A DNA stretch of 54,971 nucleotides from a virus. The stretch covers positions 1-54,971 of the IMG/VR virus record IMGVR_UViG_3300024999_000135; one strand, given 5' to 3'. The notes under the pieces were generated by a model that did not search any database, had not been told where the DNA came from, and saw only the letters and a list, made by a program, of their open reading frames with translations. Each line of letters begins with the position of its first letter. The stretch's first letter is position 1. Made by a program: the position numbers and the translations under genes. This document shows positions 766 through 48,627 of the stretch, piece after piece.

Positions 766-781
766 AAAATCATGATAAAAG
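766..781 (+). promoter_or_regulatory. AAAATCATKAYAAAAG element, copy 1
   Basis: Exact sequence AAAATCATGATAAAAG, identical to the copy at 41161-41176 and one or two bases different from those at 8752 and 53242. All four sit 1-7 nt after an inverted repeat and upstream of a gene with its own RBS. The function is unknown: a phage-specific promoter or a regulator site are both possible. Confidence 0.55.
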
Positions 782-835
782 GAATCTTTGGTAGTAATTA
801 TAATAAAAAATAAATATAAAAAGGAGAAATGAATT

Positions 836-11216: not shown

Positions 11217-11299
11217 ATATTTAAGGTCTAATCCAAATAAAAACAAAAAAGATAATTTAAATAATATTTAAGTAATTAATAAAATCTTCGTTTTATCAT

Positions 11300-11350
11300 G
11301 ATATAGGTAAAATTACGCAATATCGTAATAATATTAATTTTACCTATATC
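11300..11350. repeat. 16-bp perfect inverted repeat
   Basis: The arms are GATATAGGTAAAATTA (11300-11315) and its exact complement (11335-11350). The 19-nt loop contains CG...CG that can extend an alternative inner pairing (ATTACG with CGTAAT). It is the longest arm-plus-loop element in the window. Confidence 0.8.
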
Positions 11351-12538: not shown

Positions 12539-12570
12539 GTGAATAGTTAAAAATTGAAGGAGGTTATATT

Positions 12571-13899: not shown

Positions 13900-13927
13900 A
13901 ATATAAAAATAAAAGGAGGAAATTATT

Positions 13928-14350
13928 ATGATTTTAAAAGAAGAACAAAGGGATTTATTTTCAGTACCACATGGTTATTATTTTGCACATTGTATTTCTG
14001 GTGACTTTGCTTTAGGTGCAGGAATTGCAGTAAAATTTAATGAATTATATAATATGCGTAAGAAATTGAAAGGTTTATATGATTATGAGATTACTGATAA
14101 TTGTGCTATTCTAATTGACAATGTATTTAATCTAGTAACTAAACGAAGAGCATTTCATAAACCTACATATGAAAGTTTACGAGAAGCATTAGAGGATATG
14201 ATTGAGACAATTGAGACATTAGAAATTGAAAAAATTGCTATGCCGATGATAGGATGTGGACTAGACAAACTTTCTTGGGATAGAGTAAAAGAAATTATTG
14301 AAGAAGTATTTGAGGATGTAGATGTTGAAATTTTAGTTTGCTATTTATAG
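13928..14350 (+). CDS. TARG1/OARD1-like macrodomain ADP-ribosyl hydrolase
   Basis: A 140-aa single macrodomain predicted to remove ADP-ribose from acidic side chains or from DNA bases. The substrate loop is FAHCISGDFALGAGIAVKF (19-37). LVTKRRAFHKPTYESL gives K72, and GCGLDKLSW gives D113. These correspond to the TARG1 catalytic Lys84 and Asp125, in the same sequence setting as the human enzyme (LVTKERYWHKPTYSSL, GCGLDRLQW). DarG antitoxin macrodomains share the fold, but no DarT-like gene is adjacent. Instead a PARP starts 12 nt downstream, so a writer-eraser pair is the simple reading. Confidence 0.9.
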   Translation: MILKEEQRDLFSVPHGYYFAHCISGDFALGAGIAVKFNELYNMRKKLKGLYDYEITDNCAILIDNVFNLVTKRRAFHKPTYESLREALEDMIETIETLEIEKIAMPMIGCGLDKLSWDRVKEIIEEVFEDVDVEILVCYL

Positions 14351-14362
14351 GAGAGTGGATAT

Positions 14363-15586
14363 ATGCAAAATCCATTATATCTAGTTAAGGTAGAACCTAA
14401 CGCAAATAATAATAAGATGTATAGAATGATACCTAATGGAGATTATTTTGAAGTGCAATTTGGTAGAATTGGCAATTCAGGTTTTCAAACTACTTCTTAT
14501 CCTATGTCACAATGGGATAAGAAACTAAAAGAGAAGATTAAAAAAGGATATGTAGATCAGTCAAGATTAGTTGCAGAAACTACTATTACACCAAACAAGA
14601 AGAAAAAATATCTTGATATTAATAATCCTTCTATAGCACAAATTGTAGCAAGGCTTCAATCAATGGCACGACAAGCAATTAAAGATAATTATACAATAAA
14701 TTCTCAGAATGTTACTCAGGTTATGGTGGATGAGGCACAATTAATTTTAAATAACTTAATTGATACTGAAGATATTAAATTATTTAATAAAATATTAGTT
14801 GATTTATTTAAAACTATTCCTAGAAAAATGGGAAAAGTTAAAGATTATCTTGCAAAAGATGATAAAGATTTTTCAGAAATAATTCAAAGAGAACAAGATT
14901 TGCTTGATGTAATGAAATGTCAGGTTGTTGAACATTCGATAGAAGAAAAAAATGAAAATAATGTAACAGAAGTAGAAAATAATAAAACAATATTAGATGC
15001 AATGGGATTGCAATTTGAAGAAGTTACACAAGAAGAATTAAAAATGATTAAGAAAGAATTAGGTGAAATTAGTAATAAGTTTTATTCTGCATGGAAAGTT
15101 ATTAATTTAAAAACACAGGAAAGATATGATAGGTACGCACATAATAATAATATAAAAGATAAAAAATTGTTATGGCATGGTTCTCGCTCAGAGAACTTTT
15201 GGAGTATTATTAATATGGGATTATCTTTAAAACCACAAGCAATATTAACAGGATCTCTCTACGGAAATGGGATTTATTTCGCTCCAAAAGCACGTAAAAG
15301 TCTAGGCTACACATCTTTAAATGGTAGTTATTGGGTAAGAGGTAATAGTAATTCAGGGTTTATGGCTTTATTTGAAGTTACGTATGGGAAACCTTATGAT
15401 GTGTATACTTTTGATAGTAAATATCATAATTTAAATTATGAAAATCTTCAAAAGGTATGTTTTGGAGCAAATTGTTTACATGCACATGCAGGAGCAAATA
15501 TTGGATATTCAACATTAAAGAATGATGAAATAGTAGTATATAAAGAAGAACAATGTACTATTAAATATTTAATTGAATTGAGGTAA
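14363..15586 (+). CDS. WGR-domain poly(ADP-ribose) polymerase (PARP1-like)
   Basis: A 407-aa PARP. The N-terminal WGR-like domain (about 1-70) contains FEVQFGRIGNSG, the nucleic-acid-sensing module. Residues about 85-185 look like the helical regulatory domain. After an acidic linker the ADP-ribosyltransferase domain shows the full H-Y-E triad: H272 in LLWHGSRSENF, Y305 in GNGIYFAPKARKSLGYTS, and E389 in LKNDEIVVYKEEQ. The Glu implies polymer formation or efficient transfer rather than a dead domain. The order WGR-HD-ART is that of minimal DNA-dependent PARP2/3-like enzymes. It would use NAD+ and release nicotinamide, the substrate of the NAMPT at 3-704. The macrodomain partner ends 12 nt upstream. 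Confidence 0.94.
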   Translation: MQNPLYLVKVEPNANNNKMYRMIPNGDYFEVQFGRIGNSGFQTTSYPMSQWDKKLKEKIKKGYVDQSRLVAETTITPNKKKKYLDINNPSIAQIVARLQSMARQAIKDNYTINSQNVTQVMVDEAQLILNNLIDTEDIKLFNKILVDLFKTIPRKMGKVKDYLAKDDKDFSEIIQREQDLLDVMKCQVVEHSIEEKNENNVTEVENNKTILDAMGLQFEEVTQEELKMIKKELGEISNKFYSAWKVINLKTQERYDRYAHNNNIKDKKLLWHGSRSENFWSIINMGLSLKPQAILTGSLYGNGIYFAPKARKSLGYTSLNGSYWVRGNSNSGFMALFEVTYGKPYDVYTFDSKYHNLNYENLQKVCFGANCLHAHAGANIGYSTLKNDEIVVYKEEQCTIKYLIELR

Positions 15587-15592
15587 TGATTA

Positions 15593-16324
15593 TTGATAAA
15601 AGTAAAAGAAGATTTAACAGGTAGAAAATTTGGAAGATGGAAAGTAATAAAACAAGCAGAAGATCATATTGGTAAAAGTGGAAAATCAAAAATAGCATAT
15701 TGGGTAGTTCAATGTTCTTGTGATAAAGGAACAATTTCTGAAGTGAGTGGATGTAGTTTAAAAAGAGGAGAAAGTAAAAGTTGTGGTTGTCTAAAAAGTG
15801 AAATAATAACAAAAATTAAAAATAATCAAATTAAATTTAATACATATGATTTAACAGGAGAATATGGAATAGATTATGATAGTGACAATAAAGAATTTTA
15901 TTTTGATTTAGAAGATTATGATAAAATTAAATCATTAGAAAGATGTTGGAAATTAGATAATAAAGATTATGTATATGCTAAACATAAAGATCGTAGAATT
16001 GGTTTACATAGATATTTAATGGATATAGACGATCCCAATATCATTGTTGATCACAGAGATAGAAAACCAAATAATAATAGAAAATATAATTTACGTGTTG
16101 CAGATAAACCTAAAAATGCTTTTAATCGTAAATTAAATTCAAATAATATATCTGGAGTTACAGGAGTACATTTTCATGAAAAGAAAAATAAATGGGTTGC
16201 AAAAATAAATGCAAATAGTTTAGAATTAAGGGAAAGTTTTGATTTATTTGATGATGCAGTAGAACAAAGAAAAATATGGGAAAAAGAATATCATAAAGAG
16301 TATTCTAATGGAAGATTAGAATAA
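15593..16324 (+). CDS. HNH homing endonuclease with zinc ribbon and AP2-like C-terminus
   Basis: 243 aa. The N-terminus LTGRKFGRWKVI with CSC...CGC cysteines (to about 65) is the ribbon seen in many phage HNH proteins. The HNH core is RRIGLHRYLM, IIVDHRDRKPNNNRKYNLR. The C-terminus (SGVTGVHFHEKKNKWVAKI) is an AP2-type DNA-binding fold. TTG start, 8 nt after GAGGT. It begins 6 nt after the PARP stop, so it sits in the same operon, most likely as a homing passenger. Confidence 0.85.
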   Translation: MIKVKEDLTGRKFGRWKVIKQAEDHIGKSGKSKIAYWVVQCSCDKGTISEVSGCSLKRGESKSCGCLKSEIITKIKNNQIKFNTYDLTGEYGIDYDSDNKEFYFDLEDYDKIKSLERCWKLDNKDYVYAKHKDRRIGLHRYLMDIDDPNIIVDHRDRKPNNNRKYNLRVADKPKNAFNRKLNSNNISGVTGVHFHEKKNKWVAKINANSLELRESFDLFDDAVEQRKIWEKEYHKEYSNGRLE

Positions 16325-16347
16325 TGTAATTAAGTATTAAATTTTGT

Positions 16348-16388
16348 TCAAGGGAAAATAAATTAAAAATAAATAAAATTTCCCTTGA
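16348..16388. terminator. Inverted repeat overlapping the next promoter
   Basis: The arms are TCAAGGGAAA (16348-16357) and TTTCCCTTGA (16379-16388). The right arm contains the start of the -35 hexamer TTGACA (16385-16390). It could end the ligase-PARP transcript and, as DNA, be an operator over the replication promoter. Confidence 0.55.
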
Positions 16389-16413
16389 CAAAATGTAAAA
16401 ATAAATATATAAT
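16385..16413 (+). promoter_or_regulatory. Sigma-A consensus promoter of the replication region
   Basis: TTGACA (16385-16390), 17-nt spacer, TATAAT (16408-16413), perfect in both hexamers. Just downstream the 7-mer AGGAGTA occurs three times in tandem (about 16419-16439), giving a series of RBS-like sequences in the leader without a start codon directly after them. Confidence 0.85.
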
Positions 16414-16500
16414 GTAAAAGGAGTAAGGAGTAAGGAGTAAGAAACTTAATCCAAAAAACAAATTCAAAAAATTAAATTGAAAAGGAGAAATGATTTATTT

Positions 16501-20075: not shown

Positions 20076-21626
20076 ATATTAATAGAAATTAAGAATCACA
20101 ATATTGCTAATGAAACACTTTTAGTAGGAAGTATGTATAAAAATCCTGATATTTATGTTGAATATGGACATGTAATGCGTCCTAAATATGATTTTTATGA
20201 TAGTTCTTGTCAATTTTTTTATAATAGTTTTGAAATTATGTATCAAACATTTTCACAAGATTTTAATGAAAATAATATAAATATTTTTATGTCACAGGAT
20301 AAAAAAAGAAATAATCAGTATAAAGAATATGGTGGTTATAAAACAATTGAAAAAATGATGGAACTTTCAAATATAGATGATTTTAAAAACTATTTTAATA
20401 TAGTTAAAAAGTATTCTCTTATTAGGGAATATGAACGAAATGGATATCCAATACAAAAAATATTGGAACATAAGAAATTTGATTTATTTACTGCCACTGA
20501 TATTTATAAAATGATAAAATCTAAAGCGGATAAGATAAATACAGTCATTAGTGGTGGAGAAGATAGTATTTTATTAGGTAAAAAATCTAAAAATAGAATT
20601 AAAGAATGGATTAAAAAACCAAGTTTTGGTATTACTTTTCCTTGGAATTATTGGAACATATTTTTTAGAGGATTTAGAAAGAAAAAATTAATAGTAGAAG
20701 GAATGCTATCAAATGAAGGTAAGTCAAGAAAAATGGTTGCACTTGCTACACATATATCATTGGTTGAAAAAAAATCTGTATTAATAATGACTAACGAAAT
20801 GTCAGAAGAAGACATTGAAGCTTGTAAAATTGTAACTGTTATAAATGACCCAATACATAAAAAAAACTTTGATTTTGATTTAAGTAAAACAGAAGAAGAA
20901 ATTGTTCTTGGAAGATATAGAAATGACACCGGAAATTTTATAATTAGAGAATTAGATAAACACGAAAATCCTGTTTTAACAGATGAAGAATATGAAGAAA
21001 AACTATTTAATGAATCGACAGAATATAGAAATACTCTCCAAATTGCTGAATGGATAGAAGAAAATACTAAAATATATTTTAAAGAAATGAGAGAATATGC
21101 TGATGATGATTTAGAAATGGAAATACGAAAACATGTTCTTTCTAAAAATGTTGGATATGTAATGTATGATACCTTAAAAGGTTACAGAACTGATGATTGG
21201 GGAACTATTAAACAAACTGCAACAAGACTTGAAGAACTTGCTAAAGAATTAAATATCGGTATTTATGCTAATTTCCAACTAACAGATGATTCAGTTTATC
21301 TTGAAGTATTTGACCTTAATAGTATGAATTTAGCCAATAGTAAACAAGTATTTCATGTTCTTGATTATTTAGTTTTAGGTAAAAGACTATTTCGGGATGA
21401 TTATGATAAATATTCTATTATTGACGATTGGGGTGGAGAAATACCACTTGATATTAATAAAACATATTATGGACACAGATTTGCAAAAAGTAGAACTGGT
21501 GGGAAAGGTAAAGTTACTGTATGTGAAGTAGATTTAGATAAAAATACATGGATTGAAGTTGGATTACTTATAAAAAAAGGTAATAAAAATAGCGATTCTA
21601 AACCAAAACAGAGAATTGGGGCATAA
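20076..21626 (+). CDS. dnaB: DnaB-like replicative helicase
   Basis: About 516 aa. N-terminal DnaB-like helical domain (NIANETLLVGSMYKNPDIY), then a RecA-fold core: Walker A GMLSNEGKS (Lys about 216), a helix carrying TNEMSEEDIEACK, and Walker B VGYVMYDTLKG. The arginine-rich HRFAKSRTGGKGKV near the end is the family's C-terminal motif. ATG 20058 has no RBS. AGGTG at 20066-20070 instead fits ATA at 20076 (or ATA 20082), so I place the start at AUA. It should unwind DNA ahead of the phage polymerase and pair with the primase that begins 3 nt downstream. Confidence 0.85.
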   Translation: MLIEIKNHNIANETLLVGSMYKNPDIYVEYGHVMRPKYDFYDSSCQFFYNSFEIMYQTFSQDFNENNINIFMSQDKKRNNQYKEYGGYKTIEKMMELSNIDDFKNYFNIVKKYSLIREYERNGYPIQKILEHKKFDLFTATDIYKMIKSKADKINTVISGGEDSILLGKKSKNRIKEWIKKPSFGITFPWNYWNIFFRGFRKKKLIVEGMLSNEGKSRKMVALATHISLVEKKSVLIMTNEMSEEDIEACKIVTVINDPIHKKNFDFDLSKTEEEIVLGRYRNDTGNFIIRELDKHENPVLTDEEYEEKLFNESTEYRNTLQIAEWIEENTKIYFKEMREYADDDLEMEIRKHVLSKNVGYVMYDTLKGYRTDDWGTIKQTATRLEELAKELNIGIYANFQLTDDSVYLEVFDLNSMNLANSKQVFHVLDYLVLGKRLFRDDYDKYSIIDDWGGEIPLDINKTYYGHRFAKSRTGGKGKVTVCEVDLDKNTWIEVGLLIKKGNKNSDSKPKQRIGA

Positions 21627-21629
21627 TCT

Positions 21630-22694
21630 ATGGAAGTAAAAGAATTATTTAGTAAAATTATAAAACATAATGATATTAGAAAAATACTTGAAAACTTAGA
21701 TATGCACCATATTAACGATAAAGGAGAGTATTATACTTGTGGGTTTCCAGATGGAGACAATATTAAAAGTGTTGTCATTTATAAAGATAATTTATGGATA
21801 AATGCCTATACAAGAGATATATCAGATAAATATGGTTATACAAATATAATATCTCTTGTTACTTTTATTAAAGGTTTATATTTTACTCAATCAATTAAAT
21901 GGATATGTGATATTTGTAATTATAATTATTACGAAGAACCAAAATCTAAAACAGAAATGATAAAATTTTTAGATTATATTTATAATGAAAAACATGGTAA
22001 CGATAAAAAAGAACAAGATGAAGTAATTTATTTAAAACCAATAGATGAAAATATTTTAAAATATTATGGAAACTATTCAAACAAATTATTTTTACAAGAT
22101 AATATAGATATACAAACACAAATTGATTTTGGTTTAGGATATGATTTAGAAACTCATTCAATCACTATCCCTATAAGAGATGAATTAGATATTCTTATAG
22201 GTGTAAAATCAAGATTATATAAAAAATCTTGTGAATTAGAAGAATGGGAAAGTAAATATTTTTATCTTATACCATGTGCTAAATCTAAAATATTATATGG
22301 ATTAAATAAAACTATGCCATATATTAAAAGGGCAGGTTACGTTATTGTAGGTGAATCAGAAAAAATGCCCATGCAATTATGGTCATATGGAATTAAAAAT
22401 GCTGTTGCTATTGGTTCACATACAATATCAAAATATCAAGCAAAAAAACTTACTCATTTAGGTGTAGATATTGTTTTAGCTTATGATAAGGATGTAATGT
22501 TTAATGAGAATGGTAAGTTTAATAAAAAATTTTATGATAAAGAATGTGCAAAGTTTTTAGATAATCAAATAGTATATTGTTTATTTGATGAAGATGGAAT
22601 ATTAAAAGAAAAAGAATCACCTACTGACAATTTTGAAAAATATAAAATATTATACGAAAATAGACGTATTTTGAAAGGAGTAAATATAAAATAA
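21630..22694 (+). CDS. DnaG-like primase (TOPRIM)
   Basis: 354 aa. The C-terminal half is a TOPRIM fold: GYVIVGESEKMPMQLWSYG gives the conserved Glu, and DIVLAYDKDVMF gives the DxD. The middle KSRLYKKSCELEEWESKYFYLIP resembles the DnaG RNAP-basic subdomain. The N-terminal region keeps the shape of the zinc domain (EYYTCGFPDGDN) but lacks a full CHC2 cysteine/histidine set, so it may not bind zinc. It would synthesise RNA primers with the DnaB helicase just upstream. It ends directly against the RecJ-like gene. Confidence 0.82.
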   Translation: MEVKELFSKIIKHNDIRKILENLDMHHINDKGEYYTCGFPDGDNIKSVVIYKDNLWINAYTRDISDKYGYTNIISLVTFIKGLYFTQSIKWICDICNYNYYEEPKSKTEMIKFLDYIYNEKHGNDKKEQDEVIYLKPIDENILKYYGNYSNKLFLQDNIDIQTQIDFGLGYDLETHSITIPIRDELDILIGVKSRLYKKSCELEEWESKYFYLIPCAKSKILYGLNKTMPYIKRAGYVIVGESEKMPMQLWSYGIKNAVAIGSHTISKYQAKKLTHLGVDIVLAYDKDVMFNENGKFNKKFYDKECAKFLDNQIVYCLFDEDGILKEKESPTDNFEKYKILYENRRILKGVNIK

Positions 22695-24386
22695 ATGAAA
22701 TTTAAAATAATAGGTGAAAATAATTATAATGCTAGTAATTTAATTTATGAGATATTAAAAAATAGAGGTATTAAAGACATTGATAGTTTTCTAAATATAA
22801 ATGAAAGCGTTATTACTAATCCGTATGTCTTTAAAAATATGGATATTGCTATAAAGTGTTTATTGAAACATTTAGAAAATGAATCAAATATATTAATTAT
22901 TCCTGATACAGACGTAGATGGCATCACATCATCAAGTTTACTTTATAACTATATAAAAGAAATATATCCAAATGCAAAATTATTTTTTAAAAACCATACT
23001 AAAAAAACACATGGTATTATGTTAGATGATTTACAAGATATATTACCACAAATACAACTTTTAATACTTCCAGATGCTTCAAGTGAACAATTCAAAGAAC
23101 ATAAAATAGTAAAAGATATGGGAATTGATATTATAATTATTGATCATCATAGTGTAAAAGATTATAGTGCTAATGCTATTGTGATTAATAATCAATTATC
23201 TAAAATATCAACTAACTTGTCAGGGGTTGGTATGATTTATAAATTTTGTAAAGCATTGGATGAAGAATTATGGGAAGATAAGGCAGACAATTATTTGGAT
23301 TTAGTAGCAGTTGGACTTATAGCGGATTATATGAATACGAGAGATTTAGAAGTACAATATTACATAAGAAAAGGTTTAAGTAATATAAAAAGTCCTGCAT
23401 TAAAGGCATTAATAGAAATACAAGAATTTTCTCTTAAAGGAGAAATTAATCCAATTGCTATAGCATTTTATATAGCACCATTAATTAATTCAGTATATAG
23501 ATTAGGTACAATTGAAGATAAGGATTTAATGTTTAAATCATTTGCTAATATTGATACAGATAAAATTTTTATATATAAACCTACTAGGGGTTCTCGAAAA
23601 GGTGAAGAAATTGAAGAAACTATATATCAAAATTGTGCCAGAATGTGTGCAAGTTATAATGGTAAAAGAAAAAGATTATCTGATAAATTAATTAAACCGA
23701 TAGAAAGTCAAATAGATTTAAATAATAAAATTATATGTGTAAAAGTTGATAAAGAAGAATCTGAAGGAATGTCGGGTTTATTGGCAAATGCTTTATTGGG
23801 CAAATATAATAAACCATCAATTGTATACTCTATTAATGAAAAAAATGAAGTAAAAGGTAGTATGAGAGCAAATACAGGAGATTTTAAAGAAAAACTTCAA
23901 AATACAGGATTATTTGTATTTGTTTCTGGACACCAAGATGCAGCAGGGATACAGATAAAAGAAAAATATTTAAAAAATATTAATGATAAATTAAATGAAT
24001 ATTTTATAAATGAAAATTTTGAAAAAATATATGAAGTTGATTTTAAAATACCGTTTGAAAAAATTTCATTTGAATTTATTAAAGATATCACAGATTTAAA
24101 ATACATATATAGCACTAATATACAAGAACCATTAATATATATTGAAAATATAAAAGTAAGTACACAAAACATTAAATTACTAGGTGAGAAAAAGAATACT
24201 ATAAAAATAGAAACTGACGAAGTTGATTTTATTAAATTTAAAAGTAATGAAGAAATTTATAGTAATATGGTTGATTGGAAAGATGAAGTAATATTAAATA
24301 TTATTGGTAGAGCAAGTATTAATGAGTATAATGGTAAATTAACTGGGCAGATAATGGTTGAGAAATGGGAAATAATTGATTTATAA
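22695..24386 (+). CDS. recJ: RecJ-like single-strand DNA exonuclease (DHH/DHHA1)
   Basis: 563 aa, the length of RecJ-type enzymes. DHH motif I is IIPDTDVDG (68-76), motif II LILPDAS (123-129), the DHH signature IIDHHS (148-153), and motif IV VGLIADYM. The DHHA1 motif is VSGHQDAAG, a substitution of the usual GGHxxAAG. The C-terminal OB-like domain reads VILNIIGRASINEYNGK. RecJ acts 5' to 3' on single strands in repair and can process replication ends. ATG overlaps the end of the primase region; RBS GAAAGGAGTAAAT. Confidence 0.88.
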   Translation: MKFKIIGENNYNASNLIYEILKNRGIKDIDSFLNINESVITNPYVFKNMDIAIKCLLKHLENESNILIIPDTDVDGITSSSLLYNYIKEIYPNAKLFFKNHTKKTHGIMLDDLQDILPQIQLLILPDASSEQFKEHKIVKDMGIDIIIIDHHSVKDYSANAIVINNQLSKISTNLSGVGMIYKFCKALDEELWEDKADNYLDLVAVGLIADYMNTRDLEVQYYIRKGLSNIKSPALKALIEIQEFSLKGEINPIAIAFYIAPLINSVYRLGTIEDKDLMFKSFANIDTDKIFIYKPTRGSRKGEEIEETIYQNCARMCASYNGKRKRLSDKLIKPIESQIDLNNKIICVKVDKEESEGMSGLLANALLGKYNKPSIVYSINEKNEVKGSMRANTGDFKEKLQNTGLFVFVSGHQDAAGIQIKEKYLKNINDKLNEYFINENFEKIYEVDFKIPFEKISFEFIKDITDLKYIYSTNIQEPLIYIENIKVSTQNIKLLGEKKNTIKIETDEVDFIKFKSNEEIYSNMVDWKDEVILNIIGRASINEYNGKLTGQIMVEKWEIIDL

Positions 24387-24419
24387 ATAATTAATAAAAT
24401 ATTATAAGGAAGTGATTGT

Positions 24420-27400
24420 TTGAGTAAACCAGAATATAGAACTGAATTACATACTCATAGTTACTATTCTCTCCTTGATGGTCTACCAAGTCCTACAGAA
24501 ATTATTGAAAATGCAATCAATAAAGGAATGAAAAGTATTGCTCTTACTGATCACGGATTTCTTGGAGGTATGGCAGAATTCTTTTTACAAGCAAAGAAAA
24601 ATAATATTAAACCTATTTATGGTATAGAAGCATATGAAACATCTGATGTTTTAAATAAAGATAAAGATAATAGATATTATCATTTACTTATACTCTGTAA
24701 AAATAATAATGGGATGAAGGAACTTAACAAAATAGTAAAAAGGTCTACACAAGAAGAAAATTTTTACTATAAACCACGTATTGAGATTAATTGGTTAGAA
24801 CCATTTGCAGATGATTTGATTATTAGTACAGCTTGTTTAAATGGAAGAATTAATAAAATAGGTAAGGATGAAAAAATAGAATTTGTCAAACAAATGAAAT
24901 CTGTTTTTAAAAATTTTTATATCGAACTTCAAAGTCATGATACTGAAGACCAAATTGTTTGTAATAAGGAATTGATAGAAGTTTCAAAAATAACTAATAC
25001 TCCTATTGTTATTACATGTGATTCTCATATGCTTAATGAAGAAGATTTGGAATTACATAGTAGATTTAAATCTATAGTAATGAATAGTAAAAAGACTCCT
25101 GATGAAATTGGCGAAGCATATAAAGATTGTTATATACAAACTGTAGATGATATTTATAAAAAAATGTCTTACTTACCAGAAGAGACTATTTATGAAGGTA
25201 TAAATAATAGTAATTTAATAGCGAATATGTGTAATGTTGAAATAGATTTTTACAATATAAAATTTCCAGAAATTAATATTCCACTACAGTATAAAGATAT
25301 TAGACAATTTATTGAGTCAAGGATAAATGAAGGTTGGCAAGAAAGAGAGTATTATTTAAAATCACAAAAAAGACAACAGGAAGCTAAAGAAAGAATTAAA
25401 TATGAATTAGATGTTATTGATACTAAAGGTTACTTAGATTACTTTGCAATTGTAGATGATTTTTTGAGATATAATAAAGAACAAGGATATTTACCACCTA
25501 AAGGTAGGGGATCTGCAGGAGGATCATTAGTAGCATATTTTATGATGATTCATGATATTGATCCATTAGATTATGATTTGTTATTTGAGAGATTTCTTAA
25601 TCCAGATCCTAACGATACTCATATTCCGGATATTGACATAGATTTTAGTCATTTAGTTAGACAGGATATAGTTGATTATTGTATAAAAAAGTATGGTAAT
25701 AGTAAAGTTTGTAATATTGGACTTTATTCTTATATGAAAGCAAAAACAGCAATTAAAGATGTTGGTAAATCTCTAGAAATACCATTTTTTGTAACCAATG
25801 AGATTTCTAAGACATTATCAGATGATACAAAATTATCAGAATATATAGAAGAAGAAAAACATCTAAAGTGGATTGAAAAATATAGTAAATTTCAAATCAA
25901 AGAAATGTTTGAATTTGGAGCAAAACTTCAAGGAATCCCTAAAAGTTTTGGTAGTCATCCTTCAGGCAAAATTATATCAAATATGATTCTTGAAGAAGAA
26001 ATGGGAATGGCAGTGATAGATGGTGAAAATGTATGTATGTATGATATGCACTATGTTGAAGATTTAGGGTTTATTAAATTTGATTTTCTTGGATTAAAAA
26101 CTAATACAACAATTTATGAAACTTTGAAATTAATTAATAAGGATGCAAAATTCATTGAAACTGCAAGACTAGATTTTAATGATGACAAAGTTTACGAACA
26201 ATTCAGACTAGGAAATACATCAGGTATATTTCAATTTAGTTCTTATGGGATGAGAGAAGTATTATCTAAGATGCAAGTAGACTGTATTGAAGATTTAATC
26301 GCTGCTAATGCTTTATTTAGACCAGGAGCTATGGATTATATTGATGCTTTTTGCCATAATAAACAACATCCAGAAGATATTAAATATATAAACGATAGTC
26401 TTAGTGATATACTTAAAGTTACATATGGGCAACTTGTATATCAAGAACAAATGATGGCTGTTGGTAAAATGGCTAATGTACCTTCTATAGATGATTTACG
26501 TCGAGCTTGCGGTAAAAAGAAAATTGATCTAATGAAACAACAAGAAGTTTTCTTAAAAGAAGGATTGCTTAAAAAGGGATGGAAACAAAAAGAAGTAGAT
26601 ATCATATGGGAACAGATGGTAAAATTTGGATCATACGCTTTTAACAAATCGCATTCCGCAAGTTATGCAATTATTGCATATATTACTATGTATTTAAAAG
26701 TATATTATCCTGTTGAATTTATGACTTCTTTATTAAATGCTTATAATAATGATAATCAATTAACCAGTAAATATATTGCTGAAGCACAACGAATGGGAAT
26801 TAAAATTAAAACACCTAATATTAATAAATCAGAAAAAAATTTTACAGTAAATGATGGTTCTATACTTTTTGGTTTAAAAAATTTAAAAGATTGTGGCGAA
26901 GTATTTGTTAATAAATTATTAGAAGAAAGAAATAAAGAACCATTTAAAAATTTTACAGATTTTTATAAGAGATTAAAACCAGATAAACCTTCAGTTGTTT
27001 CGCTTATTAAAGCGGGAGCATTTGGTATTAAAAATAGAGAACAATATCTTTTAAATTTTATAGAATCTCTATTTGAGAAAAAAGAATATTCTCCAGTTAC
27101 TACTTCATTACCAACTATTAAAAAACTTAAAGAACAATGGGGCATAGAAGCAAAAAATAAAGAAGATAGATTAAAATATTATAATGCAAAACGTAAGATA
27201 TTATTTGACGAAGAACAAATAGTTAAACATGAAAAACATGTTTCAGAATTAAAAGAAAAATATATGAGTAATTATGAGATGTGGGAATATGATACCATGT
27301 CAATGTTTATTACTTTTAATCCATTAGAAAAATATAGTAAACATATTAGAAATTTTGAATCAGTTGAAGAAGGTAATGAAATTGTATTAATAGGTGTTAT

Positions 27401-27635
27401 TGCTAGTGTCCAAAAGAAAACAGATAAAAATAAAAAACAATTTGCATTTTTAGATATTTATCAAAATGGAGATTTAATAGAAGTTATATGTTGGCATACT
27501 CAATTTAAAGATTATGTAAACATGTTAACTAGAGGTAAAGTGGTGGTTATATTAGGTAAAAAAAGTGAAAGTAAAGTAATATTAAAAGAATTAAAAACTT
27601 TAGAACAATGGAAATTGCAAAAGGGGATTAGTTAA
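24420..27635 (+). CDS. dnaE: C-family DNA polymerase (DnaE-type Pol III alpha) with PHP domain
   Basis: 1071 aa. The PHP domain at the N-terminus is intact: ELHTHSYYS (H11, H13), LTDHGF, YGIEAYE, YYHLLIL, STACLNG, YIELQSHD and ITCDSHM supply the metal ligands, so it could be a proofreading exonuclease. The polymerase core has GRGSAGGSLVAYF and the acidic motif PDIDIDF (403-409). Later motifs are FDFLGLKTN, LFRPGAMDYI, YQEQMM and NKSHSASYA. The C-terminal OB domain (IVLIGVIASVQKK) follows the HhH region. TTG start, RBS AAGGAAGTGA. No separate epsilon subunit or clamp gene is visible. The stop overlaps the next ATG by 1 nt. Confidence 0.95.
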   Translation: MSKPEYRTELHTHSYYSLLDGLPSPTEIIENAINKGMKSIALTDHGFLGGMAEFFLQAKKNNIKPIYGIEAYETSDVLNKDKDNRYYHLLILCKNNNGMKELNKIVKRSTQEENFYYKPRIEINWLEPFADDLIISTACLNGRINKIGKDEKIEFVKQMKSVFKNFYIELQSHDTEDQIVCNKELIEVSKITNTPIVITCDSHMLNEEDLELHSRFKSIVMNSKKTPDEIGEAYKDCYIQTVDDIYKKMSYLPEETIYEGINNSNLIANMCNVEIDFYNIKFPEINIPLQYKDIRQFIESRINEGWQEREYYLKSQKRQQEAKERIKYELDVIDTKGYLDYFAIVDDFLRYNKEQGYLPPKGRGSAGGSLVAYFMMIHDIDPLDYDLLFERFLNPDPNDTHIPDIDIDFSHLVRQDIVDYCIKKYGNSKVCNIGLYSYMKAKTAIKDVGKSLEIPFFVTNEISKTLSDDTKLSEYIEEEKHLKWIEKYSKFQIKEMFEFGAKLQGIPKSFGSHPSGKIISNMILEEEMGMAVIDGENVCMYDMHYVEDLGFIKFDFLGLKTNTTIYETLKLINKDAKFIETARLDFNDDKVYEQFRLGNTSGIFQFSSYGMREVLSKMQVDCIEDLIAANALFRPGAMDYIDAFCHNKQHPEDIKYINDSLSDILKVTYGQLVYQEQMMAVGKMANVPSIDDLRRACGKKKIDLMKQQEVFLKEGLLKKGWKQKEVDIIWEQMVKFGSYAFNKSHSASYAIIAYITMYLKVYYPVEFMTSLLNAYNNDNQLTSKYIAEAQRMGIKIKTPNINKSEKNFTVNDGSILFGLKNLKDCGEVFVNKLLEERNKEPFKNFTDFYKRLKPDKPSVVSLIKAGAFGIKNREQYLLNFIESLFEKKEYSPVTTSLPTIKKLKEQWGIEAKNKEDRLKYYNAKRKILFDEEQIVKHEKHVSELKEKYMSNYEMWEYDTMSMFITFNPLEKYSKHIRNFESVEEGNEIVLIGVIASVQKKTDKNKKQFAFLDIYQNGDLIEVICWHTQFKDYVNMLTRGKVVVILGKKSESKVILKELKTLEQWKLQKGIS

Positions 27636-30073
27636 TGGAGGAATTAATATTAGATTTAAAGAAAACCAAAGAAAAAATAGATATGGATAAATTATATGAA
27701 TTTATCGCTACAATTACATTTCCTTTATATTATAATCAAAATAATAATTTTGGTGTATATGAATTTACTTGTGATGAAGAATTACCATATACTATACCAT
27801 ATGTTTATAAGGATAAAAATAAATATGTAGGTTGCTTAAATGGTAATATGCAAGAACTATATTGTGAAACTGAATATAAGGTAAAAGCAAAATTAAAATA
27901 TAATAAAAAATATAAAAAATATGATTATAATGTTGAAAGTATTATTAACGAGCAACCTAAAACTTTAGATCAACAAAAAAAGTTTTTAGAAGTATTATGT
28001 ACACAAAAACAAGCCGATTCTTTATTATCAGTTTATCCTAATATAGTTGAAGATATTATGACAGGTAATTATATTGATATAACTAAAATAAATGGTATAG
28101 GAAATATCACATTTGAAAAAATTAAAGATAAAATATTAGATAATTATATAATTCAAGACGTTTTAGTATTACTTAGACCACTTGGAGTAACTTTTAATAC
28201 AATAAAAAAGATGATAGGTTATGAAAATAATCCTTCTCTTTTAAAACAAAAAATAATCGAAAATCCTTATATATTAACTTCAGTGCATGGTTTAGGATTT
28301 ACAAAAGTTGATATATTGGCCTTGAAATTAGCACCTGATTTAAGAGTAAGTTTACAAAGAGTTAAAGCATTCTTATTTTATAAATTAAAGGAAATTGCTA
28401 ATTCAGAAGGTCATACTTGGATTAGTAAGCGAGATTTAATTGGATATATTAGAAAAGATTTAAGAGAATGTATCGATATCTATAAGGAATTTATTGAAAA
28501 GGAAATAAAAGAACCTGAATTGCTATATATTGATAATGATAAAGTCGGATTATTAAATTATTACAATAAAGCAAAAAATATAGTTGAACAATTATATTGG
28601 TTGGATAGTTTAGAAAGTATGATTGAACCATTTACAGAAGAAGAAATGGACAAATCAATATTAGAAACGGAAAAAGAATTAGGTTTTAGTTTTACTGAAG
28701 AACAAAAAAAGGCAATTAAAAGTATTAATGAAAATAATGTTATTATTGTGACAGCTCCAGCCGGATCTGGAAAGACTAGTGCTGTCAAAGGTATATTTGA
28801 TTTATTTACAAAAGCAAAAATAAAAGAAAAATTTATTAAAAGTGAATATAATCAAATACATGAAGAAGATAAAATGAAAGAAGATGAATTAGATTTGTTT
28901 GGAAGTTTGACACAAGGAAAATACAATGGTTTATCTGCTATAGATGACACTACAATTATAAGAATTGGTCAATGTGCATTATCAGCAAAAGCAGCAAAAA
29001 GAATGAAAGAGGTATCTGGTCAAGATGCTATGACTATGCATCGTATGTTGGGATTTGGTAATTCAGGATTTGCTTATAAAAAAGATTTTCCTATGAGGTA
29101 TCATAATAACGTACTTGATGAAGGTTCAATGGTAAATAAATCACTTATAAATAATTATATAAATGCTATTAAACCTCATAGTAAACTTATTATAATATTT
29201 GATTTTGCACAATTGCCACCTATTGGTTCAGGAGATTTTACAAGAGATTTATTAAAAAGTAAATTATGTATAAATAAATTTAATAAAGTACATCGTCAAG
29301 GTGAAAAAAGTGGAATTTTAATGGATGCTAATAAAATTAGAATTGGTGTTAATCCAATTGATAAATTAGAAAGAAAAATTGTTCATGGTGAACTAAAAGA
29401 TATGTTTTATATATTTGATACAGATAAAGAAAAAATGAGAGATTTAGCTATTAAATCTTATTTAAAATCTGTTAAAGATATTGGATTAGATGAAACAGTT
29501 ATAATTACTCCAAGAAGAAGAAAATGTATTAATAGTGCTGTAGAAATTAATAAAATAATTCAAGACAAATTGATACCGAATGATGTATTGCAAATGATAA
29601 GATGGAAAGATGGAGAAAAATGTATTTTTAAACTTGGTGCAAAAGTAATGCAAAAGAAAAATAATTATGATAAAAATGTATTTAATGGTGATGAAGGTTA
29701 TATCACTGATATCCAAAAAGATTATTTTACTGTTACATTTAATTTAGAAAATGGTCAAAAACCAATAATATATTCTAATAATGAATTAGATCAAATGGAA
29801 TTAAGTTATGCTATTTCTGTACATTCTGCCCAAGGAAGTCAATACCATTCAATTATTTGTGTTTTTGATATGAGTAGTTATATAATGTTAAATAGAAAAA
29901 TATTATATACTGCTATTACTAGGGCAAGAAAAAGATGTATGTTAATAAGTGAACCAAGAGCATTTAAAGCATGTTTAGATGATGAAAATAATAAACCAAG
30001 AAATACATTTTTAAGTGAAATGTTTGAAATTTACGATAAAGAAAATGGTTGGGATAATATATTAAATATTTAA
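27635..30073 (+). CDS. RecD2-like SF1 DNA helicase
   Basis: 812 aa. The N-terminal region has an OB-like part and a helix-hairpin-helix segment (DITKINGIGNITFEKI; also SVHGLGFTKVD), as in RecD2. The SF1 core has Walker A TAPAGSGKT with K380, an LDEGSMV Walker B in place of the usual DE-rich motif, FDFAQLPPIGSGDF (motif III), and VHSAQGSQ and YTAITRARKRC (motifs V and VI). It is probably a 5'-3' helicase in recombination or fork processing. It is translationally coupled to the polymerase (TAATG overlap) and is the last gene of the replication operon. Confidence 0.9.
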   Translation: MEELILDLKKTKEKIDMDKLYEFIATITFPLYYNQNNNFGVYEFTCDEELPYTIPYVYKDKNKYVGCLNGNMQELYCETEYKVKAKLKYNKKYKKYDYNVESIINEQPKTLDQQKKFLEVLCTQKQADSLLSVYPNIVEDIMTGNYIDITKINGIGNITFEKIKDKILDNYIIQDVLVLLRPLGVTFNTIKKMIGYENNPSLLKQKIIENPYILTSVHGLGFTKVDILALKLAPDLRVSLQRVKAFLFYKLKEIANSEGHTWISKRDLIGYIRKDLRECIDIYKEFIEKEIKEPELLYIDNDKVGLLNYYNKAKNIVEQLYWLDSLESMIEPFTEEEMDKSILETEKELGFSFTEEQKKAIKSINENNVIIVTAPAGSGKTSAVKGIFDLFTKAKIKEKFIKSEYNQIHEEDKMKEDELDLFGSLTQGKYNGLSAIDDTTIIRIGQCALSAKAAKRMKEVSGQDAMTMHRMLGFGNSGFAYKKDFPMRYHNNVLDEGSMVNKSLINNYINAIKPHSKLIIIFDFAQLPPIGSGDFTRDLLKSKLCINKFNKVHRQGEKSGILMDANKIRIGVNPIDKLERKIVHGELKDMFYIFDTDKEKMRDLAIKSYLKSVKDIGLDETVIITPRRRKCINSAVEINKIIQDKLIPNDVLQMIRWKDGEKCIFKLGAKVMQKKNNYDKNVFNGDEGYITDIQKDYFTVTFNLENGQKPIIYSNNELDQMELSYAISVHSAQGSQYHSIICVFDMSSYIMLNRKILYTAITRARKRCMLISEPRAFKACLDDENNKPRNTFLSEMFEIYDKENGWDNILNI

Positions 30074-30092: not shown

Positions 30093-30121
30093 TTGACATC
30101 CAAGCCTTAAACAATTATAAT
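30093..30121 (+). promoter_or_regulatory. Sigma-A consensus promoter upstream of tnpB
   Basis: TTGACA (30093-30098), 17-nt spacer, TATAAT (30116-30121), perfect hexamers. It is followed by a hairpin (30131-30179) and the RBS of the TnpB gene. Confidence 0.8.
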
Positions 30122-30130
30122 AATAACCAA

Positions 30131-30179
30131 GGGAAGAGATAAAATCCATAATAAATTTTCAACACAACAATCTCTTCCC
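30131..30179. repeat. 10-bp inverted repeat before tnpB
   Basis: The arms are GGGAAGAGAT (30131-30140) and ATCTCTTCCC (30170-30179), with a 29-nt loop. It is more G+C-rich than the genome's usual palindromes. It could be the left-end hairpin of the IS200/IS605-type element or an attenuator between promoter and gene. Confidence 0.6.
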
Positions 30180-30209
30180 AAAATAATAAATAAAAAGGAG
30201 GTGAAAATT

Positions 30210-31400
30210 ATATTAATTTATAAAACAATAATTGTACCAGTCAATTGTAATAAGTCAGATTATAATTATCTAATGCAGTGTAATAAATATTCAGCTATAA
30301 TTTGGAATAACTGTGTGAAAGCAGATCAAAAGAGCAGAGAAGAAAATAATAAATCACTTACACGATCAGAATTACAATTTATGATGAAGAAGACAGTACC
30401 ACATATATTGGCAAATAGTATCAATATGGTTATATTTAAGTACATTACTGCTAGAGACGCAATGTTTCGTTCCATTAAAGCAAAACATGAAAATAGTAGT
30501 AAAGTAAAATTACCATATAAGGAAAAGAAATTTTATAACACAGGATGGACTTATCAAAATATAAGAATATATAAAGATAAGGGATATTTAACTTTAGCTA
30601 AACCATTATTACCAGGTCATACAAAACAAAAACCCATGAAATGTCACTTAAAAAATATTCCAGATAATATTGTAGAGATTGAATTGATTTATCATAATAA
30701 ATTATATCTTTATATTAAAACTAAACAAGAAAATGATAATATTTTAATTCAATCCAATAATGAAGCAAGTATTGACCTTGGAGAGATACATAGTATTACA
30801 AGTATAGACAATAACCAAAATGCAATTATAATTACTGGTAGAAAAATTAGAGAAACAAAACAATTAAGAAATAAACATATGGGTAAATTAAAAAGTCGAA
30901 GAAGTAAATGTATTAAGGGTAGTAGGCAGTATAAAAAATATAGCAGAGCAATAAAGAAGTTAATGTATAAAACAAATAATAAAATTAAAAATTATGTACA
31001 TAAGATTACAAAATATTACTTAGATTATTGTATTAAAAATAATATTAGTAAAGTTTATTATGGTGACTTAGATAGTTGCACTAGAAATACTAAAAAAGAA
31101 CATCGTGGTAGTAAAAAAATACATCAAAAATTAAATGAATGGAATTATGGACAAATAATGAGAGAACTTACAAATAAATTAACAAGATGTGGTATTCAAT
31201 TAGTTAAGGTTAAAGAGTATTATACATCTAAAAAATGTCCTGTTTGTAATAAATTAAATAGTCCAAAGGGAAGAAATTATAAATGTGATTGTGGATACGT
31301 AATGCATAGGGATGTAAATGGAGCAATTAATATACTTAACGATAATTCACAATATAATATTAATAAGTATAAAAGTTTAAAGTATCTACAAATTACTTAA
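30210..31400 (+). CDS. tnpB: TnpB RNA-guided nuclease (solitary IS605/IS607-type OrfB)
   Basis: About 396 aa. The N-terminal basic region (KTIIVPVNCNKSDYNYLMQC) is of OrfB_IS605 kind. The RuvC motifs are ASIDLGEIHS (Asp about 189), VYYGDLDS as RuvC-II (Asp where many TnpBs have Glu) and HRDVNGAINI as RuvC-III. The zinc finger CPVCN...CDCGY is intact. No tnpA lies nearby, so it is a TnpB-only element. The RBS AGGAGGTG contains the only GTG (30201); the proper distance falls on ATT 30207 or ATA 30210. The 3' end leads straight into a structured region, the likely guide RNA. Confidence 0.88.
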   Translation: MLIYKTIIVPVNCNKSDYNYLMQCNKYSAIIWNNCVKADQKSREENNKSLTRSELQFMMKKTVPHILANSINMVIFKYITARDAMFRSIKAKHENSSKVKLPYKEKKFYNTGWTYQNIRIYKDKGYLTLAKPLLPGHTKQKPMKCHLKNIPDNIVEIELIYHNKLYLYIKTKQENDNILIQSNNEASIDLGEIHSITSIDNNQNAIIITGRKIRETKQLRNKHMGKLKSRRSKCIKGSRQYKKYSRAIKKLMYKTNNKIKNYVHKITKYYLDYCIKNNISKVYYGDLDSCTRNTKKEHRGSKKIHQKLNEWNYGQIMRELTNKLTRCGIQLVKVKEYYTSKKCPVCNKLNSPKGRNYKCDCGYVMHRDVNGAINILNDNSQYNINKYKSLKYLQIT

Positions 31401-31530
31401 TATAATTTATTAAGTATGAGTAGTAGATGTTCAGGGACAGAACCTAGTTAATGACTGGTAGCCTATTGTAATTGAATAGGAAAATTTAAATAGAAATATT
31501 TAAATGTGTTCCGAACCTCGATTTCGTCAT
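31401..31530 (+). ncRNA. Putative omega-RNA (reRNA) and right end of the TnpB element
   Basis: The segment directly after the tnpB stop has no ORF, has higher G+C than its surroundings, and can fold: CCTATT...AATAGG (about 31463-31481) and a longer ATTTAAAT...ATTTAAAT pairing (about 31486-31508). The end near CCGAACCTCGATTTCG resembles right ends downstream of clostridial TnpB genes as I remember them. TnpB guide RNAs are known to come from this position, with the guide read from the downstream flank. The exact boundary, near 31525, is not determined. Confidence 0.6.
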
Positions 31531-31621
31531 AAATATTCTAACAACATAACTTCACAAAATAGGGTATAATAAAAACAAACATAACCATAAAAACAAAACT
31601 CAGAAAGAAGGTATTCCACAT

Positions 31622-32359
31622 ATGCAAAAATTAGAAATAGGTCAACCCTACACCCTATTCACCGGAAAATAACATGAAAAATCAAACTGGATGCCTCTTT
31701 GAATGTATAAAAGATGGTACACTACTTCTCAATATCTATATCAACAATATGACAGCATCAGAAAACAATCACTTAGATTTGATAAAATTGAAGTACGTAT
31801 CATAGAAGAAAATAATTTCCTCTACACATTACTTAAATTTGGTGAAACTCTCATGTTTGAATTAGATTTCGATCCTACCTTATATAAAGACGATAGAATT
31901 ATTAACATTATTAAAAGTAATCTTGTACATTTAATTAGTACAGAAAGTAATAATAATCTAATTCAAACTCTCCGTTTAGTAAACGTTCCATTAAAATTAT
32001 TCATAAAATGGCACACTATTTGGATTAATGCTAAAGATATTGATAACTATAGTAAAAAATATAAAAATTGGGTATTTGACTTGCAAATAGATATTCACCT
32101 ACTGAATTATGGGAATATGGAAAATATATTGGAAAGATGGGAGAATAAAAATATGAATTACTCTATCAGTCTAAGTGAAGTAATCAATATAATTAAAGAA
32201 AATCAAATATTTAAGGCAAATTATGCAATAAATCAATATTGGTATATAACTAAACATGCTGGATTTATATGGTATTGTGATGAAAATGGTATAATTGATG
32301 AAGTTGTTCCTTTAACATATAGTAATATAAATGCAAAATATGAATTAATTAAAGAATAA
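31622..32359 (+). pseudogene. Decayed phage hypothetical gene (stops and frameshifts)
   Basis: AGAAAGAAGG and ATG 31622 start a frame (MQKLEIGQPYTLFTGK) that meets TAA at 31670 and TGA at 31700. The codons between them (HEKSNWMPL) and the 218 residues from 31703 on are in the same frame. Between about 31697 and 31775 the +1 frame looks more natural (ECIKDGTLLLNIYINNM) before the original frame resumes with RFDKIEVRIIEENNFLYTLL. A T gained and a T lost would explain both switches. The C-terminal 218-aa ORF may still be translated. It lies directly after the TnpB element. Confidence 0.6.
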
Positions 32360-41160: not shown

Positions 41161-41176
41161 AAAATCATGATAAAAG
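41161..41176 (+). promoter_or_regulatory. AAAATCATKAYAAAAG element, copy 3
   Basis: AAAATCATGATAAAAG, identical to copy 1. It runs into the RBS AAAGGAGG of the second tnpB, so it sits only about 12 nt from the start codon. Confidence 0.55.
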
Positions 41177-41187
41177 GAGGATTGATT

Positions 41188-42405
41188 ATTAAAGTAAATA
41201 GAGTGGAAAAACATAGAATAAGAAATAAAAGTCCTGCATGGGAAATAATAGATGGTTTAAGTTTTAAATCAAAAAACTTATATAATTATGCTAATTATTA
41301 TGTAAGACAGGAATTTATAAATAATAAAAAATATATAGGCTATTATGATTTAAAAAAGATTTTAAAAACTCATAAACCTTATAAAGAATATGGTTCACAA
41401 ACTGCACAACAAACATTAGTAGTATTAAATCAAAATTGGCAATCATTTTTTGTAGCAATTAAAGATTGGAGTAATAATCCCACCAAATATTTAGGTAGAC
41501 CTAAATTGCCAAAATATAAAGATAAAGAAAAGGGTAGATTCCCAGTAATTATAACTAATATTCAATTTACAATTTTAGATGGATATATTAGATTTAGTTG
41601 GACACCATTAAAATCTCTTAATAAAATGTTTAAAACAAATATTAAACATAAACTGATGCAGATTAGATTCATTCCCAAGGGTGCTGATTATATTTTAGAA
41701 ATAGTCTATGAAATAAACATACCTGAAATAAATCAATATAACCAAAGAATTGCAGGGATTGATATAGGTGTTAATAATCTTGCAACAGTATCTAATAATA
41801 TAGGAGTGATGCCTTTTATAATTAATGGTAAACCACTTAAATCTATAAATCAATATTACAATAAAAAGAAAGCACAGATGCAATCAGATTTAAAGAAAAA
41901 TCATAATAAGAATTGGAGTAAGAGATTAGAAAAACTAACTTCAAAACGTACTAATAAAATTATTGATTATATGCATAAAACAAGTAAATACATAGTGAAT
42001 TGGTGTATTGAAAATAACATTGATTTATTAGTAGTAGGTTATAATAAGAAATGGAAACAAAGTAGTAAATTATCTGAAAGAGTAAATCAAAATTTTGTAC
42101 AAATACCTTATCAGATGTTTATTAATCAATTAAAATACAAATGTCAGAATATAGGAATAGAATTTGTTATATCTGAAGAAAGTTATACTTCTGGAACATC
42201 TTTTTTAGATAATGAGAAACCAATAAAGGAATATTATAATAAAAATAGACGTAAATATCGTGGTTTATTTATTAGCAATAAAAATATTAAAATTAATGCA
42301 GACTTAAATGGAGCATACCAAATTATTAAGAAAGTAGCACCAAATGTTTTTAACAATGGTGTAGAGGATGTATGTTTACATCCAGTTAGGGTTAATATAA
42401 TCTAA
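41188..42405 (+). CDS. tnpB: TnpB-family protein without zinc-finger cysteines (second solitary copy)
   Basis: About 406 aa, of the OrfB subfamily ending SGTSFLDNE ... NADLNGAYQIIKK ... LHPVRVNII. RuvC motifs are GIDIGVNN (Asp192), LLVVGYNKKWKQ in the RuvC-II place, and NADLNGAYQI (Asp). The usual CxxC finger is replaced by YTSGTSFLD, a known trait of this subfamily. No tnpA is present, and only 45 nt separate its stop from nrdJ, leaving little room for a downstream guide RNA. ATG 41167 precedes the RBS (GGAGG 41176-41180); ATT 41188 lies 7 nt after it, so an AUU start is likely. Confidence 0.82.
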   Translation: MKVNRVEKHRIRNKSPAWEIIDGLSFKSKNLYNYANYYVRQEFINNKKYIGYYDLKKILKTHKPYKEYGSQTAQQTLVVLNQNWQSFFVAIKDWSNNPTKYLGRPKLPKYKDKEKGRFPVIITNIQFTILDGYIRFSWTPLKSLNKMFKTNIKHKLMQIRFIPKGADYILEIVYEINIPEINQYNQRIAGIDIGVNNLATVSNNIGVMPFIINGKPLKSINQYYNKKKAQMQSDLKKNHNKNWSKRLEKLTSKRTNKIIDYMHKTSKYIVNWCIENNIDLLVVGYNKKWKQSSKLSERVNQNFVQIPYQMFINQLKYKCQNIGIEFVISEESYTSGTSFLDNEKPIKEYYNKNRRKYRGLFISNKNIKINADLNGAYQIIKKVAPNVFNNGVEDVCLHPVRVNII

Positions 42406-48569: not shown

Positions 48570-48627
48570 CACTTAATATTGTTCCAAAGAGAAATTTTGT
48601 CATGATTTAAGGAGGGAATTTATTATT

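What the first reader, a model, noticed from the sequence alone, without database searches (positions are those of the whole stretch)
30093..31621. Solitary TnpB with probable omega-RNA, promoter and left hairpin in a phage replication region
Seen: consensus promoter, 10-bp inverted repeat, TnpB with full RuvC and zinc finger, then a structured non-coding 130-nt segment whose end adjoins a decayed gene. No tnpA. Inferred: a functional RNA-guided nuclease used by the phage as a homing gene or weapon. The guide would come from the sequence just after about 31525.
Basis: partly seen in the sequence, partly recalled or inferred. Interest (0 to 1): 0.55.

Follow-up and report, generated by a model that had tools for sequence, protein, structure and literature searches.

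The report
Phage TnpB parked on repeated motif
A phage carries a small RNA-guided DNA-cutting enzyme with its guide RNA but no transposase, and in this enzyme's close relatives the guide usually reads a DNA motif repeated between the phages' own genes, so it probably spreads between phages by cutting copies that lack it.

Summary
The TnpB gene and an omega-RNA are real. The RNA (about 31380-31512) has five covarying helices, one a pseudoknot (96.6% of cells paired, 17 of 30 pairs changed on both sides). Three details of the finding change. The promoter and 10-bp hairpin belong to the phage: the same arrangement follows recD in a relative before a different gene. The RuvC is the 'alternative glutamate' type (GDL; E336 six residues before CxxC). 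The guide starts at 31513, not about 31525.

New: in all 5 omega-RNA-bearing copies from motif-rich phages, the guide coincides in exact register with an intergenic, roughly palindromic motif ('M') repeated through these genomes (guide-only p 1e-5 to 3e-4). For one relative (L008) the same locus without tnpB exists in another phage and matches the guide at 19 of 20 bases. At the window's own locus, related phages carry HNH endonuclease genes instead. No Y1 transposase lies in the window's record.

Best reading: a TnpA-less, RNA-guided homing-endonuclease-like element (about 0.5). Against: the window's own target was not found, the left boundary is unresolved, and three further guide RNAs do not fit M significantly.

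The parts
27635..30073 (+). recD2-type helicase gene, left neighbour; left flank of a locus that holds HNH endonuclease genes in related phages
   Evidence: Pfam; L040 80% DNA identity to window 20664-30044, ending at the recD end; HNH gene follows in L040 and L041
30093..30121 (+). sigma-70-type promoter TTGACA-N17-TATAAT; part of the phage, not of the element
   Evidence: 12 of 12 matches; promoter-like sequence also follows recD in L042, L043, L044 and L045, by eye
30131..30179 (+). 10-bp inverted repeat in the presumed 5' leader (arms 30131-30140 and 30170-30179); phage feature, not a transposon left end
   Evidence: equivalent hairpin before another ORF in the L001 phage
30195..30202 (+). 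ribosome-binding site AAGGAGGT; approximate left edge of the conserved cassette
   Evidence: DNA similarity to relatives starts at 30179-30191
30210..31400 (+). tnpB. Open frame from GTG 30201, which overlaps the RBS; start codon unresolved (in-frame ATA at 30210). RuvC D189, alternative E336, D368, zinc finger C343/C346/C359/C361 (numbered from 30210)
   Evidence: Ealt definition read in PMC10711439
31380..31512 (+). omega-RNA scaffold; core 31418-31512; 5' part (AAGTATCTAC) overlaps the tnpB 3' end
   Evidence: covariation with pseudoknot 31434-31439/31507-31512; covariance model finds 7 of the 8 family members; both tnpB-less copies in phage E3 keep AAAGTATCTAC
31513..31532 (+). predicted guide GAACCTCGATTTCGTCATAA
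   Evidence: first 20 nt after the pseudoknot strand; same register as in relatives
31502..31538 (+). motif M overlapping the omega-RNA 3' end and guide (right arm from 31522)
   Evidence: PWM score 12.4 at offset 0, next best within 100 nt -4.8; guide part alone p = 2.1e-4
31621..32359 (+). frameshifted gene right of the guide, related to Brevibacillus phage Sundance gp067
48584..48609 (+). an unoccupied copy of motif M upstream of a gene
766..791 (-). an unoccupied copy of motif M
11280..11305 (+). an unoccupied copy of motif M

Best explanation
A TnpA-less TnpB cassette (RBS, tnpB, omega-RNA) lives in large Firmicute-type phages as an RNA-guided counterpart of a free-standing homing endonuclease. 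Shown by sequence: an intact Ealt-type TnpB, a conserved omega-RNA directly upstream of the flanking phage DNA that serves as guide, that flank coinciding with a repeated intergenic motif M, and alternative nuclease genes at the same locus in relatives. Inferred: during co-infection the TnpB-omega-RNA complex cuts the uninvaded allele of the same M-bearing site in a related phage. Repair from the cassette-bearing genome then copies the cassette, so cassette and neighbours spread. Using a conserved regulatory motif as target would keep sites available.
For: Omega-RNA structure with covarying pseudoknot. Family found in phages in different contexts: window, L001, L002, L003, L008, L011, E3, plus a 149-kb phage contig in a Clostridium MAG carrying portal, terminase and tape-measure genes. 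M in exact register after the scaffold in 5 of 5 copies from M-rich phages. Of M sites scoring >=16, intergenic: 12 of 12 in the window, 28 of 32, 32 of 43 and 35 of 44 in three others. TnpB-less allele in the L001 phage matching the L008 guide at 19 of 20, with colinear flank up to the scaffold end; same locus without tnpB in the L002 phage, 3 mismatches. HNH genes at the post-recD locus in L040 and L041, and beside tnpB in L008 and L011. No Y1 TnpA in 6 of 7 virus records that carry the family; the seventh, E3, has it in a separate IS605.
Against: The window's own guide has no target: none within 4 mismatches in the loci scanned, none for an exact 19-mer in the viral collection. M fit is weaker in E3 (own guide p = 9e-4, second-best offset) and not significant for E3's two orphan omega-RNAs (p 0.017, 0.032) or L011 (p 0.19). 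The left junction does not show M: 7 copies, P = 0.11 against ordinary RBS flanks. In L008 about 155 nt of the unoccupied allele are missing, so it is not a clean insertion. L001 has tnpB but no recognisable omega-RNA in its 24-kb record.
Confidence: 0.5

Rival explanations
1. An ordinary solitary IS605/IS1341-type TnpB element, moved by a TnpA supplied in trans. The guide is just whatever flanks the insertion, and M is hit because the element inserts next to AT-rich intergenic sequence.
For: Distant chromosomal relatives (39-40% identity) in two genomes of the MAG's order also have tnpB with a related RNA 3' end; Y1 TnpA genes lie elsewhere in those genomes. E3 carries a complete IS605 next to its copy.
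Against: Exact register with M in 5 of 5 copies from M-rich phages, next-best offsets far lower. Of other TnpBs in the same phages, two canonical ones in G003 and E3 GP155 show no M at the 3' end; E3 GP144 has a moderate hit (10.3).
Confidence: 0.25
2. A weapon against competing phages: TnpB cuts M-bearing sites in rivals without copying itself.
For: Same guide-target evidence; M is widespread and intergenic.
Against: Each guide includes a variable stretch of about 6 nt, so it fits one site rather than all M sites.
Confidence: 0.1
3. An RNA-guided regulator that binds M near phage genes without cutting, like the phage-encoded TldR proteins.
For: Guide lies on a putative regulatory motif; phage TldRs exist (PMC13418256, abstract).
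Against: D189, E336 and D368 are invariant in 8 of 8 members; TldRs have a dead RuvC (recalled).
Confidence: 0.07
4. A decaying remnant without function.
For: Downstream gene frameshifted; no good start codon at normal spacing; L001 lacks the RNA.
Against: Catalytic and zinc residues invariant at 54-86% identity; RNA pairs kept by compensatory change.
Confidence: 0.08

Closest known systems
TnpB of IS200/IS605-type elements (OMEGA nucleases), Ealt/D-Phi-G clade (PMC10711439, passages read)
   Same: Pfam domains, zinc finger, Glu six residues before CxxC, DLG at RuvC-I, omega-RNA at the 3' end ending in a pseudoknot
   Different: No TnpA in cis and no detectable transposon left end; guide lies on a repeated phage motif
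Free-standing phage homing endonucleases (HNH genes at boundaries of phage exchange; PMC10448857, abstract and outline read)
   Same: Same locus after recD holds HNH genes in two relatives; similarity between phages breaks there
   Different: Specificity by guide RNA taken from the flank, not by a protein DNA-binding domain
TnpB as a gene drive of insertion sequences in plasmids (PMC11870625, passages read)
   Same: Nuclease removes or converts the allele lacking the element
   Different: That element has TnpA and spreads in plasmids; here phages and no TnpA
Phage-encoded TldR regulators (PMC13418256, abstract and outline read)
   Same: TnpB descendant kept by phages
   Different: Here the catalytic residues are intact

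Membership tests
TnpB (IS200/IS605-type OMEGA nuclease) | OrfB_IS605 and TNB/zinc-ribbon domains | tested here: met
   both above curated cut-off; Foldseek best hits are TnpB and Cas12f (from a low-confidence model, pTM 0.48)
TnpB (IS200/IS605-type OMEGA nuclease) | RuvC D-E-D triad | tested here: met
   In the rearranged Ealt form: D189, E336, D368 invariant in 8 of 8
TnpB (IS200/IS605-type OMEGA nuclease) | omega-RNA overlapping the gene end, with pseudoknot before the guide | tested here: met
TnpB (IS200/IS605-type OMEGA nuclease) | RNA-guided cleavage next to a TAM | not testable with these tools
   no biochemistry; TAM not resolved
IS200/IS605 transposon | Y1 TnpA in cis | tested here: not met
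   none in G000 or in five other virus records carrying the family; E3's belongs to a separate IS605; several records are fragments
IS200/IS605 transposon | sub-terminal hairpins at both ends | tested here: inconclusive
   no conserved left end upstream of the RBS; an omega-RNA hairpin near the right end could correspond to a right-end hairpin
Homing endonuclease gene (by function) | recognition sequence present in alleles lacking the gene | tested here: met
   met for relative L008; not found for the window's own copy
Homing endonuclease gene (by function) | clean empty site showing both boundaries | tested here: inconclusive
   right side exact, about 155 nt replaced on the left
Homing endonuclease gene (by function) | site-specific cutting and copying in crosses | not testable with these tools
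   needs mixed infection
TldR regulator | inactivated RuvC | tested here: not met
IStron | group I intron around the element | tested here: not met
   no Rfam match at gathering threshold in the window

The most novel reading that the evidence does not exclude
Several TnpB families in large Firmicute-type phages have become TnpA-free, RNA-guided homing elements specialised on one repeated dyad regulatory motif of the phage. The omega-RNA 3' end imitates one half of the motif, so insertion leaves the operator working while the other half becomes the guide. In Geobacillus virus E3 one such TnpB may be served by two extra tnpB-less guide RNAs in trans.
Probability: 0.28. Interest if true: 0.82.

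Novelty: new variant of a known kind. Interest (0 to 1): 0.6.

Why it matters
If true, RNA-guided nucleases took over the role of homing endonucleases in phages, which would explain why phages keep TnpB without a transposase. It also gives a concrete guide-target pair (L008 guide, L001-phage site) that can be tested directly. It would show a selfish element using a conserved regulatory motif as a renewable target, and it points to orphan guide RNAs in trans in an isolated phage (E3).

Tried and rejected
Left hairpin as transposon end: rejected, because it precedes a different ORF in the L001 phage. RecD of the window alone as a query found nothing; a two-sequence alignment worked. The L002 downstream gene found only its own record. 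Search for the window guide in viral contigs: 0 hits. Left half of M at the left junction: 7 copies of this family P = 0.11; 14 cassettes of several TnpB families P = 0.001; not used as proof. An earlier, looser control looked stronger because it did not demand AAAGG before the RBS. The PWM used cassette sites as seeds, so the one relied on was retrained without the six cassette windows; their reverse-complement windows were not removed from the 346 training windows, a small leak. In one search the piece named frameB was cut wrongly and is ignored. The last nucleotides of L002 and E3 were cut short in A4 and A5; A6 is the corrected alignment. The structure model has low confidence, so active-site geometry was not argued from it.

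Full report
What is there. The window is a 54,971-base virus record. After DNA polymerase III alpha and a RecD2-type helicase lies an open frame, 30201-31400, with OrfB_IS605 and Cas12f1-like_TNB domains. Its closest relatives are in other virus records: L001 86%, L002 83%, L008 80%, L003 71%, Geobacillus virus E3 58%, L011 54%, and 74% in a 149-kb contig of a Clostridium MAG. That contig carries portal, terminase-like and tape-measure genes, so it is a phage. In 225 genomes of the MAG's order only that phage contig and two distant chromosomal copies pass 1e-60.

Nuclease. D189, D368, the zinc finger and a Glu at 336 are invariant in 8 of 8 members. The canonical RuvC-II position is Gly (YYGDLD). 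The Glu lies six residues before CxxC, which is the 'Ealt' arrangement described in PMC10711439 (passages read), here with DLG at RuvC-I. So the enzyme is probably active, but not with the textbook RuvC.

Guide RNA. Aligning six copies gives five helices, one a pseudoknot between the first hairpin's loop and the 3' end. 96.6% of cells are paired, 17 of 30 pairs change on both sides, 0 of 500 shuffles reach any measure, and sliding by 1-3 columns drops pairing to 34-47%. The covariance model finds the RNA in 7 of 8 family members, L011 weakly at 7e-4. It is absent from the whole 24-kb L001 record. In E3 it finds two further copies without a tnpB, E = 3.8e-8 and 3.1e-9. Both keep AAAGTATCTAC, which suggests that the RNA starts inside the end of tnpB, at about 31380 here. 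The scaffold ends at 31512, so the guide starts at 31513.

Promoter and hairpin. They are real but belong to the phage. In the L001 phage the same promoter and GAAGAGAT hairpin follow recD before a different ORF, promoter-like sequences follow recD in L042, L044 and L045 too (by eye), and similarity among tnpB copies starts only at the ribosome-binding site.

Motif M. The bases after the scaffold looked alike in copies with different surroundings. They match a motif repeated in intergenic DNA, roughly AAATCATGATAAAA-N6-TTTTATCATGATTT, each arm with a TA/GG (or TA/CC) alternative. With a matrix trained without the cassette windows, M sits at offset 0 in the window, L002, L008, L013 and L003 (scores 9.9-20.6), with nothing comparable within 100 nt; in E3 it is one base off because my scaffold end was one base short there (corrected). 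Guide bases alone give p 2.1e-4, 2.6e-4, 9.8e-6, 3.2e-5 and 5.1e-5 for those five. E3's own guide gives 8.9e-4 (second-best offset); the two E3 orphans 0.017 and 0.032; L011 0.19. So 5 of 9 fit well, 1 moderately, 3 not. Sites scoring >=16 are intergenic in 12 of 12 (window), 28 of 32, 32 of 43 and 35 of 44 cases, where intergenic DNA is 12-22% of bases. Block-shuffled sequence gives 0-3 such windows against 19 in the window and none against 65 in 100 kb of the MAG phage. M looks like an operator or promoter element; that is inference.

Unoccupied allele. L008 is colinear with the window at 8831-16467, where the window has no tnpB. A better comparison is the L001 phage: same promoter and leader, no tnpB, then AAATCGTGTCC-AAAGGAATATTTGGTCATGATTTGTAAAAG. 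L008 after its scaffold reads AAAGGAATATTTGGTTATGATTTATGAAAAAG and stays colinear beyond. The L008 guide thus matches a real allele lacking the gene, 19 of 20. The L002 phage has the same locus without tnpB, 3 mismatches. On the left, about 155 nt present in both unoccupied alleles are missing from L008, so a simple insertion is not shown.

Locus. L040 is 80% identical to window 20664-30044, then breaks off at the recD end; an HNH gene follows in L040 and another in L041. HNH genes also lie beside tnpB in L008 and L011 and about 1.1 kb downstream in L001. This resembles the published pattern of nuclease genes at boundaries of phage exchange (PMC10448857, abstract and outline read).

Other TnpBs as controls. 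The second TnpB of the window (41167-42405) and its relative in the MAG phage have M close to their 3' ends (16.8, 17.7). Three related TnpBs in the L003 phage have weaker matches (12.8, 9.4, 7.7). Two canonical ones in the L002 phage have none at the 3' end. In E3, GP155 has none and GP144 a moderate hit.

Transposase. No Y1 TnpA in 6 of 7 virus records with this family. E3 has one, in a separate IS605. The MAG has some, none on the phage contig.

Mechanism. Shown: intact enzyme signature, conserved RNA, guide on a phage motif, one real guide-target pair, alternative nuclease genes at the locus. Inferred: cutting of the allele that lacks the cassette and copying by repair. A TnpB gene drive has been shown for plasmids with a TnpA-bearing element (PMC11870625, passages read). 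The window's own target was not found.

Print. Paper searches (open-access PMC only) listed no paper whose title or abstract start describes TnpA-less TnpB homing in phages or guides parked on a repeated phage motif. Subscription papers were not searched.

Noticed in passing
window 41167-42405 and L022:9292-10509: A second TnpB without the usual zinc-finger cysteines, directly before an apparently intein-bearing ribonucleotide reductase gene (by eye). Its left edge abuts a motif-M half-site (AAATCATGATAAAA) and M follows its stop codon; the relative in the MAG phage also has M at its 3' end.
   Followed up: partly
L056:10356-10441 (-) and L055:22250-22350 (-), Geobacillus virus E3: Two orphan omega-RNAs of this family without a tnpB beside them, in unannotated gaps: possible guide RNAs in trans. 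The first is flanked by inverted copies of an M-like sequence.
   Followed up: partly
L001 (tnpB at 5004-6197): TnpB 86% identical to the window's, at the same post-recD locus, but with no recognisable omega-RNA in the whole 24-kb record.
   Followed up: partly
window 30195-30215; L001, L002, L008, L013: No ATG/GTG/TTG at normal distance from the ribosome-binding site. In-frame ATA lies there in the window, L001, L002 and L013 but not L008 (TTA); L003 and E3 have ATG. Possible non-standard start.
   Followed up: partly
window, about 12 intergenic places (e.g. 766-791 -, 11280 +, 48584 +, 53242-53267 -): Motif M itself: a repeated, roughly palindromic intergenic motif in this phage group, function unknown, often just upstream of a ribosome-binding site.
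   Followed up: partly
L011:5863-7182: TnpB open frame continuous in frame with an upstream small DNA-binding-like domain, suggesting a fusion or an insertion into that gene.
   Followed up: no
L034, L036, L037 (L003 phage): Three paralogous TnpBs (472-478 aa) in one phage, each with a similar RNA-like tail and preceded by a small gene with paired cysteines.
   Followed up: no
L041:11545-13357: A recombinase-like gene followed by a canonical TnpB (looks like an IS607-type element) about 2 kb after the post-recD HNH gene.
   Followed up: no
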